This document shows, one piece after another, positions 47,298-62,119 of a DNA stretch of 64,000 nt (position 1 is the stretch's first letter; each line of letters begins with the position of its first letter). This DNA comes from Streptomyces smaragdinus (GTDB lineage: Bacteria; Actinomycetota; Actinomycetes; Streptomycetales; Streptomycetaceae): contig NZ_WEGJ01000002.1 in NCBI RefSeq assembly GCF_009604385.1, positions 434,001 through 498,000 of the forward strand. The letters are read 5' to 3'. The notes below the pieces were generated by a model. The model searched no databases and had not been told where the DNA came from. It saw only the letters and a list, made by a program, of their open reading frames with translations. The translations under genes and the position numbers were made by a program.

Positions 47298-47435
47298 GTG
47301 CGGTTGTGGAGATACCTCGTGGCCATGCCTCCGGCGGTCGGTCGTGGGCCGGGCTGAGTATTTCGCCGCAGGGCACGACGATCGCCGCTCCGACCCGGGA
47401 TGGCCTTCTGTCCGCAGGGTCACCAGGGGGAGCAG

Positions 47436-48611
47436 ATGGCAGCGCAGCGGCACGGCCTGGACGACCGGCTCGCGGCAGCCGTAACCGCCAAGCACTCCGA
47501 CGCGGTGTGGGCATGTCTGGGAGACGGCGCCGATCCGAACACTCCGGGTCCCGACGGCCTGCCACTGCTCTGCACCGCCGTGGCCGGATTCGACCACGAG
47601 ACCGCCGAGGCACTGACAGAGGGCGGCGCCGACTCCGACCGTGAGCTGCCGGACGGCACCACACCACTCCTTCGCGCCGTCGACCTCGGCTCCCCGGCGC
47701 TGGTCGGCGCCGTGCTCGGCAAGGACCCTCGGCTGCGGCTCGCCGAGGCTGCCCAGAAGCGACTGCTCGACCTCGCCCGGCACTGGCACGAGACCGGCAC
47801 GGCCGAGGAACTGCGCCGGCGCACGGGGACCTCGGTCCCGGCCACCCGGCGTCTGACCGAGGACGACAAATACACGCACGTCGAGGAGGTCTCCCTCGGC
47901 GGGCTCACCGTCCGGGCAGGCCACATCGCCGTCCTCACCTCGCTGGAGTGGGCGTTCGGCGTCCTGCCGCCGGTGGCGGAGCTGATGGCACGCGCCGTCC
48001 CGTACCCGGACAGAACGCATATCAACGGGTCCACGGCGGGCTACATCCTTGCCCACCGCGGAAGCCCGCAGGACTGGTCCGACCTGGTGTCCCTGCGTCA
48101 TCACCCCGACCCCGTCCACCGCCGGTTCCTCGCCGACGTCCTGTGGCACCGGGAACTGCACATCCCCTCCTCCACCTACTACCGCTGGTGCCGCGCGGAG
48201 CGCGGGCCCTGCGAGCGCATCCGCCGGGACGCGGAACTGACCGAGCAGATCCGGCGGATCCACACCGACTCCGGCGGCAGCTACGGCTCCCCACGGGTGC
48301 ACGCCGTCCTGCGGCGGGAGGGCGCGCAGGTGGGCCGCAAGCGCGTGGAGCGTCTGATGCGGGCCGCCGACCTGCAGGGCGTCAGCCCGCGCCGCTCCAC
48401 GAGCTTCACCCGCCGCGACCCGGACGCCACCCTCGCCGACGACCTGGTGCAGCGTGACTTCACCGCGTCGGCACCCAACCGGGCTGGTCCGGATGCCGGG
48501 CGGCAGGGCAGTCGTACCTACTGCGCGCATGCCCGTGCTGAACTGCGAGCTCTGCCGGTTGACGTGCGCCGGGGTCCGGCCCGCCGTGTCAGCAGTGTCA
48601 TGTGTGAATAA
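47436..48611 (+). pseudogene. Ankyrin-repeat gene fused in frame to a broken IS3-type transposase
   Basis: 391 codons from ATG 47436 (GGGGGAG upstream). Residues 1-240 are an ankyrin-repeat protein (AVWACLGDGADPNTPGPDG, ALTEGGADSDRELPDGTTPL; ending PDPVHRRFLADVLWHREL). From codon 242 (base 48159) the frame becomes IS3-family OrfB (HIPSSTYYRW, TDSGGSYGSPRVHAVLRREG, VGRKRVERLMRAA). It then leaves the transposase family after ASAPNR (about 48482), just before its DDE region. The tail to the stop at 48611 is unlike either. The frame may be read as a chimera, but both parents are broken. Confidence 0.8.
48159..48482 (+). mobile_element. IS3-family OrfB fragment (HTH_21-like part only)
   Basis: About 108 codons of transposase without start, without the catalytic DDE core and without recognisable terminal inverted repeats. 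It begins at the codons for HIPSSTYYRW and stops at ASAPNR. It is dead and cannot move by itself. It marks an old insertion and deletion just upstream of the sulfur operon. Confidence 0.8.
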
Positions 48612-48635: not shown

Positions 48636-48664
48636 TTGACCTTTTCCGTACGAGGTGAAACTCT
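48636..48664 (+). promoter_or_regulatory. Promoter for the leader peptide and sulfur operon
   Basis: TTGACC at 48636-48641, 17-base spacer, AACTCT at 48659-48664. Transcription would begin about 48671, at the ATG of the leader ORF (48672), so the leader would be translated from a leaderless mRNA. Confidence 0.6.
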
Positions 48665-48671
48665 CCTTCGT

Positions 48672-48740
48672 ATGCCAGGAACCCTGCTGATCAGTCGCCG
48701 GGTGGTCGATTACATGCTGATCGGCACCACGGCCTGTTGA
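48672..48740 (+). CDS. Cys-terminated 22-residue leader peptide (sulfur attenuator)
   Basis: A 22-codon ORF starting MPGT, with core LLISRR, then VVDY, and ending TTAC before TGA. It matches from memory the Streptomyces leader-peptide pattern LLxSRRxxDxxRxxxAxC that precedes sulfur and cysteine genes. Related short Cys-ending leaders in mycobacteria act as cysteine-responsive attenuators. It lies 226 bases before a sulfonate-type ABC permease. It is too short for ordinary gene callers. The Cys as last codon before the stop is the key feature. Confidence 0.75.
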   Translation: MPGTLLISRRVVDYMLIGTTAC

Positions 48741-48966
48741 CCCTGCTGCCGCCTGCCGCGTTCGGCGTGCGCTGGTTCCTGTAGCGCGTTTCCCTTCGGC
48801 TGCCGTGCTCCGTCGTTGCCGCGGTGTATCCGGGTGGATCATTTCCGCGACATTCTTTGCGCTGATTCTTTCGCGCCCCCTTTTCTCTGTTTCAACCTGC
48901 CCTTTCTCCGCTGCAGTCACGCTTTCGCGTCCGGCCGCACCGGCGTACCGGAAAGGTCTCTCCGTC
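48741..48966 (+). promoter_or_regulatory. Leader region between leader peptide and ABC operon
   Basis: 226 bases without a gene, partly pyrimidine-rich (CATTCTTTGCGCTGATTC and TTTCTCTGTTTCAACC stretches, 48850-48900), ending in GGAAAGG before ATG 48967. If the leader peptide is an attenuator, the alternative RNA structures should form here. I could not settle on a unique stem by eye. Confidence 0.4.
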
Positions 48967-49818
48967 ATGCCTGCTGTGCTTTCCCCTGCCCCGACTCGTC
49001 CGCCCGTGTCTGTCGTCCCGGTCCGCACGCTCGCCCTGCGCCGCACCCGGCTGCTGCTGCCTGGAGTGCGGCAGTTGCGCCGGGTCAGCGGGCTGGCTGC
49101 CGCCGTTCTGCTGTGGTGGCTGGGGGCGGTCCAGGGGTGGCTGGGGTCGACCACGCCGTCGCCGGCGGCGGTGTGGCGGGCCGGCGTGGAACTCGTCGGA
49201 TCCGGGGAGTACGGGCATCACTTGCTGGTTTCGCTGGAGCGGGTGGGCCGGGGGTTGTTGATCGGCATCCCGCTGGGGGTGGCGCTGGGGCTGGCGGCCG
49301 GGCTGACGCGCGCGGTGGAGGACGTCATCGACGCGCCGGTGCAGGCGTTCCGGATGCTGCCGCACCTGGCGCTGGCGCCCGTGTTCATCATCTGGTTCGG
49401 CATCGGTGAGACGTCGAAGACGATGCTCATCCTCATCGGGCCGGTGTTCCCCCTGTACATCAACGTGCTGCACGGCATCCGGGGCGTCGACAACCGGCTG
49501 GTGGAGGCGGCGCGTTCGTGCGGGCTGGGGCGGTGGGGGCTGACCCGGCGGGTGATTCTGCCGGGGGCGCTGCCGCAGATCCTCGTCGGGCTGCGGCAGG
49601 CGCTGGGCGTGGGGTGGCTGACGCTGGTGGTGGCCGAGCAGACGGCGACGACCTCCGGCATCGGCTATCTCATGACCGACGCCCGGGAGTTCCTGCGCAC
49701 CGACGTCATGTTCGTCGTGCTTGTCACGTACGCCGTCCTCGGCGTGCTGTCCGATCTGCTGGTACGGCTGATGGAGCGGCGCGCGCTGGCCTGGCGTCGC
49801 GGGTTCGCCGGTGTTTGA
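48967..49818 (+). CDS. ABC transporter permease, SsuC/TauC family
   Basis: 283 residues, inner-membrane permease of the nitrate/sulfonate/taurine class. An N-terminal tail of 35 residues is followed by about six membrane spans (SGLAAAVLLWWLGAV, GLLIGIPLGVALGLAAGL, TSKTMLILIGPVFPLYINV, DVMFVVLVTYAVLGVLSDLLV). The EAA coupling loop is VEAARSCGLGRWGLTRRVILP. GGAAAGG precedes ATG 48967. First structural gene of a five-gene operon; its stop overlaps or adjoins the start of the ATPase. Confidence 0.9.
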   Translation: MPAVLSPAPTRPPVSVVPVRTLALRRTRLLLPGVRQLRRVSGLAAAVLLWWLGAVQGWLGSTTPSPAAVWRAGVELVGSGEYGHHLLVSLERVGRGLLIGIPLGVALGLAAGLTRAVEDVIDAPVQAFRMLPHLALAPVFIIWFGIGETSKTMLILIGPVFPLYINVLHGIRGVDNRLVEAARSCGLGRWGLTRRVILPGALPQILVGLRQALGVGWLTLVVAEQTATTSGIGYLMTDAREFLRTDVMFVVLVTYAVLGVLSDLLVRLMERRALAWRRGFAGV

Positions 49819-49837
49819 GTCTCCCGGAGGAGAGATC

Positions 49838-50593
49838 TTGTCCGTTTCGCCGTCCCTGCCCGCGTACCCCGGTGTCCGGGTACGGGGGGTGACCCGGGCC
49901 TTCGACGGCCGGGTTGTCCTCGACCGGGTCGACCTGGACATCGCGCCCGGTGAGTTCGTCGCGCTCCTCGGCCCCAGCGGGTCGGGGAAGAGCACCCTGC
50001 TGCGGATCGTCGGCGGCATCGACACCGGGGCCGAGGGGGAGATCGGCGTGCCCGGCAAGGTCGCCGTCGTCTTCCAGGAGCACCGGTTGCTGCCGTGGGA
50101 GCGGGTGTGGCGCAACGTCACCCTCGGCCTGGACGGGGGCCGGCTGCGGGAGCGGGCGGTCGCCGCGCTCGGGGAGGTGGGGCTGACGGCGCGGGCCGAC
50201 GCCTGGCCGGGGACGCTGTCCGGCGGTGAGGCGCAGCGGGTGGCGCTGGCCAGGGCGCTGGTGCGGACTCCGGAGCTGCTGCTGCTCGACGAGCCGTTCG
50301 CCGCGCTGGACGCGCTGACGAGGCTGAAGGCGCAGCGGCTGGTGGAGGGGTTGTGGGCGGAGCACCGGCCGTCGGTGCTGCTCGTCACGCACGACGTGGA
50401 CGAGGCACTGCTGCTGGCGGACCGGGTGGTGCTGCTCGGGGACGGGGTGGTGGCGGAGGAGTTCGCGGTGGGGATGGACCGGCCGCGTTCGGTGGAGGTG
50501 CCGCGGTTCGCGCAGTTGCGGCGGCGGTTGCTGGGCGGCCTCGGTGTGGACACCGGGCCGGATCAGATTCGTACGGGAAAGGGATCCGAATGA
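49838..50593 (+). CDS. ABC transporter ATPase, SsuB/TauB family
   Basis: 251 residues. Walker A GPSGSGKST, Q-loop VFQEHRLLPWERV, signature LSGGEAQRVALARAL, Walker B LLLLDEPFAALD and H-loop LLVTHDVDEALLLADRV are all intact. TTG 49838 is chosen because GGAGGAGAG lies directly upstream; GTG 49811 in the same frame would overlap the permease stop. It energises the permease, and its stop overlaps the flavoprotein start (ATGA). Confidence 0.9.
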   Translation: MSVSPSLPAYPGVRVRGVTRAFDGRVVLDRVDLDIAPGEFVALLGPSGSGKSTLLRIVGGIDTGAEGEIGVPGKVAVVFQEHRLLPWERVWRNVTLGLDGGRLRERAVAALGEVGLTARADAWPGTLSGGEAQRVALARALVRTPELLLLDEPFAALDALTRLKAQRLVEGLWAEHRPSVLLVTHDVDEALLLADRVVLLGDGVVAEEFAVGMDRPRSVEVPRFAQLRRRLLGGLGVDTGPDQIRTGKGSE

Positions 50594-52179
50594 GCATCGA
50601 GCTGAGTGCCGACGTGCTGGTTGTGGGCGGTGGTCCGGCCGCGGCGTGGGCGGCGGTGAAGGCGGCGGAGGACGGCGCGCGGGTGGTGCTGGCCGACAAG
50701 GGCTACTGCGGGAGTTCGGGCGCGACGGCGGCAGCCGGGACGGGTGTCTGGTATGTGCCGCCGCATCCGGAGGAACGGGCGGCGGCGAAGGCGTCCCGGG
50801 AGACGCTCGGGGGGCATCTGGCGGATCACCGCTGGATGGACCGGGTGCTGGAGCAGACGTGGCAGAACATGGACGAGGTCGCGGAGGTGTCGCGGTATCC
50901 GTTCCCGGTGGACGCCTCGGGGCGGCAGTCGCGGCGTGGTCTGCAGGGGCCGGAGTACATGCGGCGGATGCGGGTGCGGGTGCAGCGGTCGGGGGTGCGG
51001 ATCCTCGACCACAGTCCGGTGCTGGAGTTGCTGACGGACGCGGACGGGGCGGTGGCGGGCGCGGTCGGGTACCGGCGGCAGGAGGACCGGGCGTTCCGGG
51101 TGCGGGCCGGTGCGGTGGTGCTGGCGACGGGCGGGTGCGCGTTCCTGTCGCGGGCGCTGGGCTGCAATGTGAACACCGGCGACGGGTATCTGATGGCGGC
51201 GGAGGCCGGGGCGGCGATGTCGGGGATGGAGTTCTCCAACGCGTATGCGATCGCGCCGGAGTTCACGTCGGTGACGAAAACGGCGTACTACACGTTCGCG
51301 ACGTTCTATCACGCCGACGGCAGTGTGCTGGAGGGTGCCGGCAGCCAGAAGGGGCGGTCGGTGATCGCGCGGACGCTGCTGGCGGAGGGAAAGGTGCTGT
51401 GCCGGCTGGACCGGGCGGGCGAGGCGGAGCGGCGGGCGATGCGGCTGGGCCAGCCGAACTTCTTCCTGCCGTTCGACCGGCTGGGCATCGATCCGTTCAC
51501 ACAGCTGTTCCCGGTGACCCTGCTGGCGGAAGGCACGGTACGGGGGACTGGGGGGATCCGGCTCACCGGCGACGACTGCGCGACGGACGTACCCGGGCTG
51601 TACGCCGCCGGCGACGCCGCCACCCGCGAGCTGATCTGCGGCGGGTTCACGGGCGGCGGCAGCCACAACGCGGCGTGGGCGATGTCGTCGGGCACCTGGG
51701 CCGGCCGGGGCGCGTCGGCATTCGCCCGGTCGCTGGGGGACACGGCGGGCCGGCGGGCGGCGAGCCCGGTGGGCGGGGCGGGGCTGCGGCCGGCCGGCGG
51801 CGCGGGGCGGGACACGCACCGGGAGGTGGTGGCCGCGGTGCAGGCGGAGGTGATCCCGTACGACAAGAACTATCTGCGCACCGGCGCGGTGCTGACGCGG
51901 GCCCTCGGCACGCTGAACGGCATATGGCGCGAGGTGCGCGACGGTCTGGCGGCCTCCGGGGAGAGCGCGGTGCGGGCGCGGCAGGCGGCGGCGATGACGG
52001 CGACGGGCCGCTGGATGTACACGGCGGCGCTGGCGCGGACGGAGACACGGGGTATGCACAAGCGCGCGGACTTCCCGGCGCAGGACGACCCGGGGCAGCG
52101 GAGGCGGCTGGTCACGGGCGGTCTGGACGAGCTGTGGAGTGTCCCGGAGACGGCGGTTGCGCAGGCGGTGCCCGCATGA
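50590..52179 (+). CDS. AprA-like FAD-dependent oxidoreductase (fumarate reductase/APS reductase fold)
   Basis: 529 residues. N-terminal FAD motif ADVLVVGGGPAAAWAAVKAAEDG. Then DKGYCGSSGATAAAGTG, ATGGCAFLSRALGCNVNTGDG with MEFSNAYAIAPEF, and the C-terminal FAD segment DVPGLYAAGDAATRELICGGFTGGGS. This is the family of succinate dehydrogenase, fumarate reductase and adenylylsulfate reductase alpha chains. It is not identical to any of them by eye, so the substrate is unknown. It overlaps the ATPase before it and the ferredoxin after it by ATGA, so the complex is probably AprA/AprB-like. Confidence 0.88.
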   Translation: MSIELSADVLVVGGGPAAAWAAVKAAEDGARVVLADKGYCGSSGATAAAGTGVWYVPPHPEERAAAKASRETLGGHLADHRWMDRVLEQTWQNMDEVAEVSRYPFPVDASGRQSRRGLQGPEYMRRMRVRVQRSGVRILDHSPVLELLTDADGAVAGAVGYRRQEDRAFRVRAGAVVLATGGCAFLSRALGCNVNTGDGYLMAAEAGAAMSGMEFSNAYAIAPEFTSVTKTAYYTFATFYHADGSVLEGAGSQKGRSVIARTLLAEGKVLCRLDRAGEAERRAMRLGQPNFFLPFDRLGIDPFTQLFPVTLLAEGTVRGTGGIRLTGDDCATDVPGLYAAGDAATRELICGGFTGGGSHNAAWAMSSGTWAGRGASAFARSLGDTAGRRAASPVGGAGLRPAGGAGRDTHREVVAAVQAEVIPYDKNYLRTGAVLTRALGTLNGIWREVRDGLAASGESAVRARQAAAMTATGRWMYTAALARTETRGMHKRADFPAQDDPGQRRRLVTGGLDELWSVPETAVAQAVPA

Positions 52180-52523
52180 TCGAGATCGTCTCCGCGGAGC
52201 GGTGCATCACGTGCGACAAGTGCATCGCGGTGTGCCCGACGAACGTGTTCGACCGGGCGCCCGACGGGCTGCCGGAGATCGCCCGGCAGGAGGACTGCCA
52301 GACGTGCTTCATGTGCGAGGCGTACTGCCCGGTGGACGCGCTGTTCGTGTCACCGACGACCCATCCCGAGCCGGTGGACGAAGCCGGTCTCGGCGACCTC
52401 CTCGGCAGCTACCGGGAGCGGCTCGGCTGGGGCCGGGGCCGCACCCCGGGCGCCCGGCTGGCCGTGGGCCCCGAACTGCGCCGCCCGGCGCCCCCCAGGG
52501 ACAAGAAAGGCACCACCTCATGA
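52176..52523 (+). CDS. AprB-like ferredoxin with two 4Fe-4S motifs
   Basis: 115 residues. Two Cys motifs are complete: CITCDKCIAVCP (residues 10-21) and CQTCFMCEAYCP (about 43-54), together eight Cys for two 4Fe-4S clusters. The C-terminal half is a charged tail ending KKGTTS. ATGA overlaps at both ends tie it to the flavoprotein and the binding protein. It probably passes electrons to or from the FAD subunit, as AprB does for AprA. Confidence 0.92.
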   Translation: MIEIVSAERCITCDKCIAVCPTNVFDRAPDGLPEIARQEDCQTCFMCEAYCPVDALFVSPTTHPEPVDEAGLGDLLGSYRERLGWGRGRTPGARLAVGPELRRPAPPRDKKGTTS

Positions 52524-53476
52524 AACGCCTGCTCGGAATCCTCGCCACGGCCCTCGTCCTGACGACGACGGGCTGCGGCGGCGACGCGGACGCCGGTGAC
52601 GCTTCGTCGGGGAAGACCCTGCGGATCGGCGTGATCGGCTCGAAGGACACCCTGAACGGCCCCGTCGGCTTCCTTCACTCCCGGCACCAGCTGCTGCCGG
52701 CGCTGAAGAAGGAGGGCTTCACGAAGATAGAGGTGTTCCCGTTCCCGAACGGGCCCGACCTCAACCAGGCCCTGGTGGGCGGCAGTCTGGACCTCGCGAC
52801 GTACGGCGACACGCCCGCCCTCGTCGCCCGGGGCAGCGGGCTCGACACCCGGCTCGTGTCGCTGGCCACGGTCAGTCTCGACGCGTCGGTCCTGGTACGG
52901 AAGGACGGGCCGACGTCACTGGCCGGGCTGGACGGGAAGAAGATCGGCGTCCAGACGGGCTCGTACATCCACCGCTATCTGCTGGGCGCGCTGCGCGACG
53001 CGGACGTGGAGCCGTCGGAGCTGCCCCACATCTACTCCACCGACATCGAGGCGCCGCTGGAGCGCGGGGACATCGCGGCGGCGGCCGTGCCGCAGGCGAA
53101 CGCGGAGGTGCTGCGCGCAAAGGGCTACCGGGTGATCGACCATCTGGCGGAGGATCATCCGGACTACGCCGGTACGAGTGTCACGGTGTCGACCGGTGAT
53201 TTCCTCGGCGACCACCCGGCGTTCGCGGGGACGTGGCGGACGCTGCAGAACGACGCGGCGCGTCAGGCGCTGGCCGACTGGAACGGGTACGTGGAATTCG
53301 CACTGACACTCAGCGATTTCCCGGACGACCTCATCAGGTCCACGATCCGCCGGGATCAGCTGCCGACGGAGGCGTTTCCCGGACCGGGGGTGGGACTGCT
53401 GGAGTCGACGAAGGAGTTCCTGGTGGAGGAAGGATTCGTGAAGAAGGACTTCTCTGTCGGGAAATGGCGGGCATGA
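52520..53476 (+). CDS. ABC substrate-binding lipoprotein, SsuA/NrtA-like
   Basis: 318 residues. Lipoprotein signal MKRLLGILATALVLTTTGCGG with lipobox TTGC. The mature part is a periplasmic-binding-protein fold of the nitrate/sulfonate/taurine type: GSKDTLNGPVGFLHSRHQLLPAL, LVGGSLDLATYGDTPALVAR, LDGKKIGVQTGSYIHRYLLGAL, ERGDIAAAAVPQANAEVLRA. It delivers the substrate to the permease encoded at the head of the operon. It is unusual in being last, after the redox genes. Confidence 0.9.
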   Translation: MKRLLGILATALVLTTTGCGGDADAGDASSGKTLRIGVIGSKDTLNGPVGFLHSRHQLLPALKKEGFTKIEVFPFPNGPDLNQALVGGSLDLATYGDTPALVARGSGLDTRLVSLATVSLDASVLVRKDGPTSLAGLDGKKIGVQTGSYIHRYLLGALRDADVEPSELPHIYSTDIEAPLERGDIAAAAVPQANAEVLRAKGYRVIDHLAEDHPDYAGTSVTVSTGDFLGDHPAFAGTWRTLQNDAARQALADWNGYVEFALTLSDFPDDLIRSTIRRDQLPTEAFPGPGVGLLESTKEFLVEEGFVKKDFSVGKWRA

Positions 53477-54006
53477 TCGGAACGTACTGTGGTGTCCGTC
53501 GAGCTGTCGGGCCACCGATCGTCGAGTGGAGCTGCTGCCGGTTGTGCGTGTTCGGCGATTGCGGATGACGGGGCCCGGTTTGATGTCCTGTGCGGCACGG
53601 GAACGAGAACTCCGCACCGTCGTGCCGACTTCGTTCTCCTGTGCTGGTTCTGTGCTGACCCATACCGCTCCCAGCTGCGTTTTCGCAGGTCGGAGCGGTG
53701 TGGGGAACGTTTCGGTTCAACTTCTACGTCTGGAGGCGGCCTGCGCCCTCGCCTGGCGCGACGACGCGCGCACCGAGGAGGCCTACGAACGCGTCGGCCC
53801 GCGAAGAGAAGGATCTCCACTGGGGCGGCAGGCCCGTCATCGCCGCGTAATCAGGCAACCAGGTGGACCTGAAGCCGCGTCCAGTCGCCGCTGACTGGCC
53901 TCGACTCCACTGGGGTTTGCGGCAGGCCACGTCATAGAGGTGTCACTTACGGCCTGGCCGGTGTTCTCTCCCGACGGCGCCTCAAAAGCAGCGGTGTACC
54001 CAACCC
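53477..54006. other. 530 bases without a convincing gene
   Basis: Short open frames exist on both strands but none has a ribosome site together with coding character. The region contains a strong hairpin (53665-53698, separate entry). Near 53740-53790 a frame with EAACALAWRDDARTEEAYER looks faintly protein-like and may be a remnant. Confidence 0.5.
53665..53698 (+). terminator. Strong two-part hairpin downstream of the sulfur operon
   Basis: Outer arms CCGCTCC / GGAGCGG (53665-53671 and 53692-53698) and inner arms CTGCG / CGCAG around a TTTT loop. It lies 189 bases after the binding-protein stop. A terminator is the simplest reading; the distance leaves room for another role. Confidence 0.6.
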
Positions 54007-54987
54007 TCAGCCCGAACCGGCGACCAGTGCCTCGCCCAGCGGGGTGCGCCGGTACAGCACCGACCGGCCGGAGCGGGCGCGGACGAGTAGCCCCGCGTCT
54101 CGCAGGATGGCGAGGTGGTCTCCTACCGCGCCGGGTGTCATGGCCAGGCTGCGGGCGAGGTGGCTGGTGCTGGCGGGGGCGTCGAGCGCCAGTAGGAGGC
54201 GGGCGCGGGCTCGGCCGACCAGGGCGGTCAGCGCGTCGGGTTGGGGGGTGGTTTCCTGTTCGCCCCACAGGGCGGCGGTGCCGCGGGCGCGGTAGACCAG
54301 GGTCTTGGGCCAGGGGTCTTCCAGTTGGGCGGCGATGTTCGCGACGAAGACCGAGGGGATCAGGAGCAGGCCGTCGCCGGTGAGGTGGACGGTTCCGACC
54401 GGGTGGAAGTGGCCGACTTCGATGCCGTTGGCGCGCCAGGTGATGCTCGGGTGCAGGCTCTCGACGGCCGTGGCCCATCCGTGTTCGCCGATTACGCCCA
54501 CCCGGTGCACGACGTCGCGTTCGCAGATCGCGCGCAGTTGGGGCCAGTCCGCGGCGAGTAGTTCGTGCCATGCCTGGTCCATGGCCTCGGCGATCCTGGG
54601 GACGGCGTCCGGTGAGTCGAGCACGGCGCGTACGCGGGGGTCTCGTGCGGATGGGCCGGTCGCGGCGGCGGCGTATTCGTCGCGGGCCGCGTCGAGCGGG
54701 GTGGCCCGGATCGTGGCCAGGTCGTCTGCCCAGGTCTGGTTGAGGCCGCGTGGGGGAGGGGCGACGAAGTTGGGTCCGGATTGCGGGGTGTGCAGGGCGA
54801 GGACGGCGTCCAGTTCGGTCTCGCGGCGAAGCCGTTCGAAGGTCGGCATGAGCCGGGTGGCCCAGGCTCGCGGCAGCGGCTGGTCCTGGCCGGCGAGTGA
54901 GCGCAGCAGGAGACAGAGGTCCAGCGCGGGCGACAGCGCGAAGCGGCTGCGCAGCAGGTCGTCGACGGAGACTTCGAAGCGGAGCAC
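54007..54987 (-). CDS. DUF5937/ArsR-family winged-helix regulator
   Basis: 326 residues, GTG start. The N-terminal region (MLRFEVSVDDLLRSRFALSPALDL; DGLLLIPSVFVANIAAQL near 212) is of the DUF5937 type. A C-terminal ArsR-like winged helix follows (LARSLAMTPGAVGDHLAILRDAGLLVRARSGRSVLYRRTPLG). There is no metal site. It diverges from an MFS transporter over an 88-base gap that holds a 20-base palindrome, so the usual arrangement of repressor and exporter is likely. Confidence 0.88.
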   Translation of the reverse strand: MLRFEVSVDDLLRSRFALSPALDLCLLLRSLAGQDQPLPRAWATRLMPTFERLRRETELDAVLALHTPQSGPNFVAPPPRGLNQTWADDLATIRATPLDAARDEYAAAATGPSARDPRVRAVLDSPDAVPRIAEAMDQAWHELLAADWPQLRAICERDVVHRVGVIGEHGWATAVESLHPSITWRANGIEVGHFHPVGTVHLTGDGLLLIPSVFVANIAAQLEDPWPKTLVYRARGTAALWGEQETTPQPDALTALVGRARARLLLALDAPASTSHLARSLAMTPGAVGDHLAILRDAGLLVRARSGRSVLYRRTPLGEALVAGSG

Positions 54988-61959: not shown

Positions 61960-62070
61960 CCCGTAGGCTTCGGGCACGCTCGCGGTGCAGGAACCCGGTG
62001 AGATTCCGGGGCGGTTCCGCCACTGTGATCCCGGCCGGCAGGGCCGGGGCAGCCAGATACTGGCCGCGGG
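61960..62070 (+). ncRNA. Cobalamin riboswitch for cobN
   Basis: Core segments in order: GCGGTGCAGGAACCCGGTGA, GATTCCGGGGCGGTTCCGCC, ACTGTGATCCCGGCC, and the B12 box GGCAGCCAGATACTGGCCGC (62046-62065). It ends about 50 bases before the cobN GTG. It should repress cobN when B12 is present. Confidence 0.95.
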
Positions 62071-62119
62071 TGATCCGACCGACGTACGGGGCGAGAACCC
62101 CGGAGGAGGACCGCTGCCC

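What the first reader, a model, noticed from the sequence alone, without database searches (positions are those of the whole stretch)
48636..53698. Cysteine-leader-controlled ABC importer fused to an AprAB-like redox pair: candidate undescribed organosulfur system
A sulfonate/taurine-type permease, ATPase and binding lipoprotein are joined with an AprA-like flavoprotein and an AprB-like 2x[4Fe-4S] ferredoxin; the ATPase, flavoprotein, ferredoxin and binding-protein genes overlap by ATGA in succession. No SsuD, TauD or SsuE gene is present, so release of sulfur from the imported compound would have to use the flavoprotein-ferredoxin complex. The leader peptide ties the whole unit to sulfur supply. 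The redox genes lie inside the transporter operon, before the binding-protein gene, so they are not a chance neighbour.
Basis: partly seen in the sequence, partly recalled or inferred. Interest (0 to 1): 0.85.

Follow-up and report, generated by a model that had tools for sequence, protein, structure and literature searches.

The report
Cysteine-controlled organosulfur importer with redox enzyme
This Streptomyces-like genome carries a five-gene unit, headed by a tiny cysteine-ending leader gene of a kind that sits before sulfur genes, which likely imports an organic sulfur compound and would free its sulfur with a flavoprotein-ferredoxin pair that passes no named enzyme model tried and recurs beside similar importers in other bacterial phyla.

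Summary
In detail: a cysteine-ending leader ORF (48672-48740), then permease, ATPase, FAD flavoprotein, 2x[4Fe-4S] ferredoxin and SsuA-type binding lipoprotein, the last four overlapping by ATGA, closed by a strong hairpin (53659-53704). The tie to sulfur supply is well supported: the six best matches of a leader profile in the whole genome all precede sulfur genes (cysHDN operon, ssuA-ssuD, cysteine synthase, rhodanese, DszC-like, this operon). The five-gene order recurs in 15 of 44 named actinomycete loci, 12 of them with the leader; 27 of 44 hold organosulfur oxygenase genes against 1 of 20 random stretches. The ferredoxin follows the flavoprotein in 72 of 80 loci.

The flavoprotein is not specifically AprA-like: two catalytic histidines of fumarate reductase and the AprA arginine that could be mapped are replaced. 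And an SsuD-like gene exists elsewhere in this genome behind its own leader, so use of the redox pair is not forced. Best reading: a dedicated, undescribed redox enzyme for an imported organosulfur compound; substrate and reaction untested.

The parts
48636..48662 (+). promoter-like element: TTGACC, 15 nt, GAAACT, 9 nt before the leader ATG; weak in the window. In relatives an xAxxxT hexamer lies 6-7 nt before the leader ATG, which suggests a leaderless transcript
   Evidence: 12 of 12 leader-headed first-layout relatives at 6-7 nt (8 of 12 CATGCT or CATCCT); of 7 second-layout leaders 2 at 7 nt, 1 at 8, 3 at 17-19, 1 none. One search found no sigma-70-like site at its stricter threshold
48672..48740 (+). 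leader ORF MPGTLLISRRVVDYMLIGTTAC*, RR-x-V-D-8 residues-C class, Cys codon next to stop
48741..48966 (+). spacer between leader and permease, pyrimidine-rich (C 37%, T 29%, A 7%); no supported intrinsic terminator or fold
48967..49818 (+). ABC permease, SsuC-type
   Evidence: NF008470 222.9 bits, below cut-off 347
49838..50593 (+). ABC ATPase, SsuB-type (TTG start inferred; GTG 49811 possible)
   Evidence: NF008420 236.7 bits, below cut-off 395
50590..52179 (+). FAD flavoprotein of the fumarate-reductase superfamily, own subfamily with invariant Y219, EGTxRGTGG (314-322), R346-E347, N360 and, in first-type members, C350
52176..52523 (+). small 2x[4Fe-4S] ferredoxin with conserved GxY...GWG tail; partner of the flavoprotein
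52520..53476 (+). substrate-binding lipoprotein, SsuA/TauA-type
53659..53704 (+). stem-loop closing the operon (terminator-like, no U tract)
   Evidence: z -6.1

Best explanation
This is a leader-headed five-gene operon that would be switched on by cysteine shortage, is predicted to import a sulfonate-type organosulfur compound through an SsuABC-like ABC transporter, and likely frees its sulfur with a dedicated FAD flavoprotein / 2x[4Fe-4S] ferredoxin enzyme. Steps: (1) shown: the leader belongs to a class whose six best matches in this genome all precede sulfur genes; inferred: the ribosome stalls at its terminal Cys codon when Cys-tRNA is scarce, which lets the downstream genes be expressed (Rho- or translation-based; not resolved). 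(2) shown: transporter and lipoprotein are nearest to SsuABC and TauA, below the curated cut-offs; inferred: the cargo carries a sulfonate-like group. (3) shown: the ferredoxin follows the flavoprotein in 72 of 80 loci and this operon holds no other enzyme; inferred: the ferredoxin shuttles electrons to or from the flavin, which carries out a two-electron step at or next to the sulfur and yields sulfite. (4) inferred: the sulfite goes to the leader-headed sulfite/nitrite-reductase-family gene beside cysHDN elsewhere in the genome and on to cysteine.
For: Leader profile A1 against the own genome: the six best hits (E up to 0.39) are the window leader and five others, all before sulfur genes (names by NCBIfam: CysH, CysD, CysN, SsuA and cysteine synthase over cut-offs; the SsuD-like, sulfite/nitrite-reductase-like, DszC/SfnB-like, MoaD-like and mercaptopyruvate-sulfurtransferase-like genes under theirs). 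The class is present in 21 of 21 genomes searched, own included, 3-12 matches each. Of 28 newly held leader loci from that search, 18 have a recognisable sulfur-type gene downstream on the leader's strand (12 by panel hits read with the strands; 6 by Pfam: SBP56, two NMT1-type binding proteins, two sulfatases, GCS2), 5 have a GST-like gene (one of them tested), 5 are unclear. Strict leader pattern: 17 of 44 actinomycete loci within 4.5 kb upstream on the + strand, 0 of 44 on the opposite strand, 0 in 400 kb of random sequence. Gene order perm-atp-flavo-fdx-sbp in 15 of 44 actinomycete and 8 of 18 Paenibacillus loci; ferredoxin next to the flavoprotein in 44/44, 18/18, 1/1 (Armatimonadota) and 9/17 (Cyanobacteria) loci. 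At least one of NtaA, TauD, SsuD, DszC/SfnB in 27/44 actinomycete loci against 1/20 random stretches, Fisher p 1.3e-5; aldo/keto reductase as a check 6/44 against 2/20. Nearest solved binding proteins are SsuA/TauA-type. Among chains under 150 residues in the table, the ferredoxin's best match is the PAPS-reductase beta subunit 8a8o_C. Active-site-region residues invariant in 103 of 103 rows, window included.
Against: No substrate, activity or expression was tested. An SsuD-like gene occurs elsewhere in the genome, and related operons of a second layout carry NtaA/DmoA- and TauD-type oxygenases beside the same flavoprotein-ferredoxin pair, so desulfurisation could be done by those. The mapped AprA Arg265 is Ile221 here. 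The window's own leader is not recognised by NCBIfam, and its spacer has no fold beyond chance (z 0.56) and only weak C-richness (9.7% of random stretches as high). Nine of 44 actinomycete and 10 of 17 cyanobacterial loci have no similar ABC gene on the same strand within 6 kb. No sulfur riboswitch passed Rfam's gathering scores in 19 Paenibacillus loci, and no leader of this class was found in 20 loci of Paenibacillus, Cyanobacteria and Pseudomonadota. The five-gene layout was not seen in the three congeners that have a close orthologue: two are of the second layout and one shows only NtaA, flavoprotein and ferredoxin.
Confidence: 0.5

Rival explanations
1. The importer feeds oxygenases encoded elsewhere (SsuD, TauD or NtaA/DmoA type), and the flavoprotein-ferredoxin pair does an auxiliary redox step, for example dehydrogenating the carbon skeleton before or after sulfur release, or supplying electrons.
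For: SsuD-like gene in trans in this genome; of the 13 second-layout loci (binding protein-ATPase-permease before the same pair) 13 hold NtaA and 11 TauD somewhere in the locus, either strand; superfamily members commonly dehydrogenate or reduce C-C or C-N bonds (established knowledge of SdhA, FrdA, NadB); FrdA Arg287 is kept as Arg256.
Against: None of the 12 leader-headed first-layout operons has a panel oxygenase between leader and binding protein, and 10 of the 15 five-gene loci carry a second flavoprotein-ferredoxin pair instead. The two histidines and the HGANR motif that hold dicarboxylates in SdhA/FrdA/NadB are absent.
Confidence: 0.33
2. The pair is an assimilatory APS/PAPS-reductase-like or other inorganic-sulfur reductase, and the transporter carries a sulfur oxyanion.
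For: Both subunits find the M. thermolithotrophicus PAPS reductase (8a8o) by sequence, an assimilatory AprBA-type enzyme (PMC10322725, section 9 read).
Against: 45.8 bits against cut-off 557 for NF005331; mapped AprA Arg265 position is Ile221; the genome already has CysH, CysD and CysN over their cut-offs; transporter and binding protein are sulfonate-type.
Confidence: 0.07
3. The redox genes are ordinary fumarate-reductase or aspartate-oxidase relatives caught in a transporter operon by chance.
For: Sources name relatives 'FAD-binding protein', 'L-aspartate oxidase' or 'succinate dehydrogenase/fumarate reductase flavoprotein subunit'.
Against: Pair conserved beside SsuABC-type genes in several phyla; separate starred side of the tree on a long branch from SdhA, NadB and the AprA-like paralogue; catalytic His residues and HGANR motif of that group missing.
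Confidence: 0.03

Closest known systems
SsuABC / TauABC sulfonate importers (E. coli type)
   Same: Permease, ATPase and binding protein give their best NCBIfam matches to SsuC, SsuB and the SsuA family; solved relatives of the binding protein are 2x26 (SsuA), 3e4r (deposited as 'Nitrate transport protein'), 6ssy (TauA) and 3uif (SsuA).
   Different: All three score below the curated cut-offs, while the genome's other SsuA passes its own (202.2 against 163.5); no SsuD/SsuE/TauD in the operon; redox pair inserted between ATPase and binding protein; lipoprotein.
Dissimilatory APS reductase AprBA and the assimilatory PAPS reductase of Methanothermococcus thermolithotrophicus (8a8o)
   Same: FAD subunit of the fumarate-reductase superfamily plus a separate small 2x[4Fe-4S] subunit; both subunits of 8a8o detectable by sequence.
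   Different: Flavoprotein closer to SdhA/FrdA by score; far below the AprA cut-off; mapped Arg265 replaced; linked to an organosulfur-type importer.
PRK13800-type flavoprotein with HEAT repeats (NF010374) beside an SsuA-type ABC operon
   Same: Also a superfamily flavoprotein tied to a sulfonate-type importer; next to the window-type operon in L057 and L085, and to the second layout in L044.
   Different: This one is truly AprA/PAPS-reductase-like (8a8o, E 6.8e-54 for the L044 copy) and only distantly related to the window's protein.
Cysteine-responsive leader peptides of actinomycetes (NF042934; Ms5788A and Ms4527A models; cys leaders of Mycobacterium in PMC1262725)
   Same: Short ORF with RRxxD...C pattern (NCBIfam class), Cys near the stop, before sulfur genes, no clear intrinsic terminator.
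   Different: Window leader has a single Cys and is too divergent for the NCBIfam models.

Membership tests
SsuABC aliphatic sulfonate transporter | curated cut-offs of NF008470 (SsuC), NF008420 (SsuB), TIGR01728 (SsuA family) | tested here: not met
   222.9/347, 236.7/395 and 89/163.5 bits: works like it, not filed as a member
SsuABC aliphatic sulfonate transporter | binds and imports sulfonates | not testable with these tools
   solved relatives are mostly sulfonate- or taurine-binding proteins
AprBA APS reductase | AprA-type model NF005331 over cut-off | tested here: not met
   45.8 bits against 557; in the genome search the window place scores 33.4 bits
AprBA APS reductase | substrate-site Arg265 (numbering of A. 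fulgidus AprA; role recalled) | tested here: not met
   AprA letters, register: Arg265 falls on position 221, Ile in 72 and Leu in 15 of 87 first-type rows
AprBA APS reductase | partner with two [4Fe-4S] clusters on eight Cys | tested here: met
   eight Cys in 97 of 97 ferredoxin rows
AprBA APS reductase | His398 (role recalled) | tested here: inconclusive
   region not in the printed AprA alignments
Fumarate reductase / succinate dehydrogenase / L-aspartate oxidase | catalytic His232 and His355 and the HGANR motif (FrdA numbering and roles recalled) | tested here: not met
   Tyr219 and Glu314 in place of the two His in 103 of 103 rows; the HGANR motif of the own genome's SdhA and NadB is absent
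Fumarate reductase / succinate dehydrogenase / L-aspartate oxidase | Arg287 of the RDxVSR motif (role recalled) | tested here: met
   Arg256 in 87 of 87 first-type and 10 of 16 second-type rows
Actinomycete Cys leader peptides (NF042934) | RRxxD-8-C pattern in a short ORF before sulfur genes | tested here: met
   of three other own-genome leaders tried with NCBIfam two pass NF042934 (33.3 and 30.1 against 27 bits) and one does not (21.5)
Actinomycete Cys leader peptides (NF042934) | NCBIfam model hit for the window leader itself | tested here: not met
   no family at E up to 1
Actinomycete Cys leader peptides (NF042934) | expression responds to cysteine | not testable with these tools
   needs a reporter

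The most novel reading that the evidence does not exclude
An undescribed, oxygen-independent organosulfur-cleaving enzyme family: a ferredoxin-driven flavoprotein with a new active site (Tyr219, Glu314-Gly-Thr-x-Arg318, Arg346, Cys350) that reductively releases sulfite from imported sulfo-compounds, spread over several bacterial phyla as a one-pair or two-pair module, and in actinomycetes placed under cysteine-leader control as an alternative to SsuD and TauD.
Probability: 0.3. Interest if true: 0.85.

Novelty: new variant of a known kind. Interest (0 to 1): 0.62.

Why it matters
The best-known aerobic routes that free sulfur from sulfonates use oxygenases (SsuD, TauD, MsuD and kin; established knowledge). 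Here a redox pair with a distinct, invariant active-site signature sits inside leader-headed, sulfonate-type importer operons in Actinomycetota and recurs in other phyla, so a testable enzyme function stands behind a protein family to which the sources seen give only generic or superfamily names. The leader link also gives a regulatory handle: a profile built from 18 leaders finds sulfur genes genome-wide and could be used to list the cysteine regulon of actinomycetes.

Tried and rejected
AprA identity of the flavoprotein: rejected. Fumarate reductase, succinate dehydrogenase or aspartate oxidase identity: rejected on the two histidines and the HGANR motif, although Arg287 is kept. Intrinsic attenuator between leader and permease: not supported (2 terminator-like sites against 1.6 expected; fold z 0.56). 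Rho-type C-rich spacer: C exceeds G in 13 of 13 leader-headed first-layout loci (window included), but in the window only as much as in 9.7% of random stretches; left open. Sulfur riboswitches in Paenibacillus: none in 19 loci. NCBIfam hit for the window leader: none. Literature for the module: the listings of ten paper searches (two searches found none) showed no title describing it; the library holds only open papers, so this is weak evidence of novelty. The neighbour panel was drawn from the loci it was then counted in; the random control limits but does not remove that circularity. The strict leader pattern was likewise derived from part of the same loci.
Full report
What is there. The window (most likely a Streptomyces, inferred; the closest named relative of the flavoprotein is in S. 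brasiliensis, 85% identical over its best segment) holds, on the + strand, a leader ORF at 48672-48740, permease 48967-49818, ATPase 49838-50593, flavoprotein 50590-52179, ferredoxin 52176-52523 and binding lipoprotein 52520-53476. Three junctions are ATGA overlaps. A hairpin of -38 kcal/mol, z -6.1, closes the unit. Upstream lies an ORF (47400-48611) with an HTH_21 / IS3-transposase fragment and sub-threshold ankyrin-like sequence; downstream, on the other strand, an ArsR-type regulator (54007-54987).

The leader and the sulfur regulon. The peptide MPGTLLISRRVVDYMLIGTTAC resembles uORFs before the same operon in other actinomycetes. An alignment of 18 (A1) has invariant M, RR, D and C, with eight residues between D and C. 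Searched against the whole own genome, the six best hits are the window leader (39.8 bits) and five others (31.2, 26.1, 22.5, 18.1 and 14.2 bits; E up to 0.39). The stretches behind the five were fetched and read, and nine downstream genes were named with NCBIfam: a sulfite/nitrite-reductase-family gene (best model 391.8 bits, under its cut-off) followed by CysH, CysD and CysN (over cut-offs); SsuA (over cut-off) with the SsuD-like gene; a MoaD-like gene with cysteine synthase (over cut-off); a mercaptopyruvate-sulfurtransferase-like rhodanese (under cut-off); a DszC/SfnB-like gene (under cut-off). The next hits (E 0.46 and 0.5) lie inside frames of 381 and 109 residues; one at E 1.75 lies in a 30-residue frame on the opposite strand of the binding-protein gene and looks like chance. 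In 20 relatives plus the own genome the class occurs 3-12 times each. Of 28 new leader loci held from that search, 12 have a sulfur-panel gene downstream on the leader's strand (my reading of the hits with the strands; the script's own tally, 6 of 28, counted + strand genes without regard to the leader's strand), 6 more have SBP56, NMT1-type binding proteins (two), sulfatases (two) or GCS2 by Pfam, 5 have a GST-like gene (one tested), and 5 are unclear; random stretches of the same length hit the panel in 16 of 200, either strand. NCBIfam knows the class: two of three other own-genome leaders tried pass NF042934 'putative leader peptide', and the Actinomadura leader reaches its cut-off, although the window leader finds no model. 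PMC1262725 (passages) describes leaders with runs of Cys codons before mycobacterial cys operons without obvious terminators; the title of Canestrari et al. 2020 on cysteine-responsive leaderless short ORFs was seen in a reference list, the paper is not held. In 12 of 12 leader-headed first-layout relatives an xAxxxT hexamer ends 6-7 nt before the leader ATG, which fits a leaderless transcript; in the window it is weaker and 9 nt away, and second-layout leaders are mixed. How the leader acts is not resolved: no intrinsic terminator or fold stands out, and the spacer is only mildly C-rich.

The module in other genomes. The genome-contig scan found 492 relatives of the flavoprotein, of which the best 80 were kept: 44 actinomycete, 18 Paenibacillus, 17 cyanobacterial loci and one Armatimonadota MAG. 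The ferredoxin follows the flavoprotein in 44/44, 18/18, 9/17 and 1/1; the five-gene order occurs in 15/44, 8/18, 0/17 and 0/1. Of 59 plasmid records with a relative I opened 14; one had no annotation, and in 13 of 13 annotated ones the flavoprotein is followed by a ferredoxin-type gene. Sulfur-labelled neighbours (SfnB, SsuD/SsuA, TauD, cysDN, cysE, transsulfuration, sulfurtransferase) are seen in 9 of the 13, not in Agrobacterium, Haematobacter, Shinella HZN7 or P. cellulositrophicus. The family is patchy: close orthologues in 4 of 37 same-genus genomes, own included, and in 4 of 396 genomes of the phylum at E <= 1e-90, own included. Of the three congeners, two have the second layout and the third shows only NtaA, flavoprotein and ferredoxin, so the five-gene layout was not met again in that sample of the genus; it is present in named Streptomyces (L031, L033, L034).

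Two layouts in Actinomycetota. First layout, as in the window: leader-permease-ATPase-flavoprotein-ferredoxin-binding protein, in 10 of 15 loci followed by a second flavoprotein-ferredoxin pair; 12 of the 15 have the leader directly in front and none of those 12 has a panel oxygenase between leader and binding protein (L061 has an SsuD-type gene after the second pair, L058 one upstream of the leader). Second layout: binding protein-ATPase-permease before flavoprotein-ferredoxin, 13 loci, with an NtaA/DmoA-type gene somewhere in 13 of 13 and a TauD-type gene in 11 of 13 (either strand), 7 with a leader directly in front. Over all 44 actinomycete loci 27 hold at least one of NtaA, TauD, SsuD or DszC/SfnB, against 1 of 20 random 20-kb stretches (Fisher p 1.3e-5); aldo/keto reductase, as a check, 6/44 against 2/20. 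Cyanobacterial loci: 6 of 17. Seven of 18 Paenibacillus loci hold sulfate-transport genes instead.

The enzyme. By sequence the flavoprotein is a fumarate-reductase-superfamily protein without a named family: its NCBIfam hits are far under their cut-offs (best 25 shown). In the profile search of solved structures SdhA and FrdA come first, the PAPS reductase alpha subunit (8a8o) ninth, AprA below. A 66-row tree puts the family on one starred side (100/99) of a long branch from the own genome's SdhA and NadB and from the AprA-like paralogue; second copies form one group at 86/69, not starred. Aligned with the own genome's SdhA and NadB, the FrdA-type catalytic positions (residue roles recalled) are His232 -> Tyr219 and His355 -> Glu314, the HGANR motif is gone, and Arg287 is kept as Arg256. 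The AprA letters and the register place AprA Arg265 at Ile221. Across 103 rows, window included and L047 left out, Tyr219, Glu314-Gly-Thr, Arg318-Gly-Thr-Gly-Gly, Arg346-Glu347, Gly355-357, Asn360 and Trp363 are invariant; rows were split by tblastn score into a first type (87) and a second type (16). Arg256 is in 87 of 87 and 10 of 16; Cys350 is in 87 of 87 first-type rows and is Thr (9) or Ser (7) in the 16 second-type rows. So the two copies probably do different steps. The ferredoxin keeps eight Cys and the Trp of a GWG tail in 97 of 97 rows.

A truly AprA-like neighbour. In L044, L057 and L085, and in two unnamed same-genus genomes (L170, L171), another SsuA-type ABC operon carries a flavoprotein that in the two copies tested (L044, L057) passes NF010374; the L044 copy matches the PAPS reductase alpha subunit at E 6.8e-54. 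This may be what an 'AprA-like organosulfur operon' should be called; the window's operon is a different one.

How it would work, and how sure. The sulfur link (leader class, neighbours, transporter type) I hold at about 0.9. That the pair acts on the imported compound, about 0.6. The main reading as written, sulfur freed by the pair, 0.5; reductive and oxygen-independent release, about 0.3. By the AprBA/PAPS-reductase precedent (PMC10322725, section 9 read), N5 of reduced FAD can attack the sulfur of a sulfo group and yield a flavin-sulfite adduct; a similar step with another leaving group is chemically plausible for activated sulfo-compounds and is an inference only. The main rival is that the SsuD-like enzyme of this genome or another oxygenase releases the sulfur and the pair handles the carbon part.

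Limits. No structure could be predicted. The loci are those closest to the query, not a random sample. The ten paper searches cover open papers only. The gene starts and the promoter are by inspection.

Noticed in passing
L044:15958-21578, L057:2267-8062, L085:2038-7605, L170, L171: A second flavoprotein-linked operon: SsuA-type binding protein, permease, ATPase and an AprA/PAPS-reductase-like flavoprotein, with HEAT-like repeats at its C-terminal end in the copies read, sometimes next to the window-type operon. Its substrate is unknown.
   Followed up: partly
G000 C77:9210 (-), C1:69762, C1:67150, C15:112133, C2:149024 (L134-L137): Five further Cys leaders in the own genome, before a sulfite/nitrite-reductase-cysHDN operon, ssuA-ssuD, a DszC-like gene, a MoaD-like gene with cysteine synthase, and a rhodanese.
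   Followed up: yes
L135:7159-7452: Between ssuA and the ssuD-like gene of the own genome the ATPase frame is short (97 aa), so that cluster may lack a working ATPase of its own.
   Followed up: no
L195, L203, L183, L202, L185, L187, L190, L204, L206: The same leader class stands before sulfatases, an SBP56-type protein, a glutamate-cysteine ligase family gene and a recurring GST-like gene in relatives.
   Followed up: partly
window 61966-62082 (+): Cobalamin riboswitch, 47.4 bits, gathering 31.5; the gene it controls was not examined.
   Followed up: no
window 47400-48611 (+): ORF that joins sub-threshold ankyrin-like sequence to an IS3-family transposase fragment, just upstream of the operon.
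   Followed up: partly
L047:9998-11575: The flavoprotein gene of Mycobacterium aquaticum holds an internal stop codon; described only.
   Followed up: no
L031, L033, L034, L041, L045, L046, L057, L058, L061, L085: A second flavoprotein-ferredoxin pair follows the binding protein; second-type copies have Thr or Ser where the first type has Cys350. No second pair was found in the own genome.
   Followed up: partly
Cyanobacterial loci such as L070, L080, L088, L105, L106: Flavoprotein-ferredoxin beside a D-2-hydroxyacid dehydrogenase, an SDR, a GST-like protein or an MFS transporter, without similar ABC genes: a different setting whose role is open.
   Followed up: no
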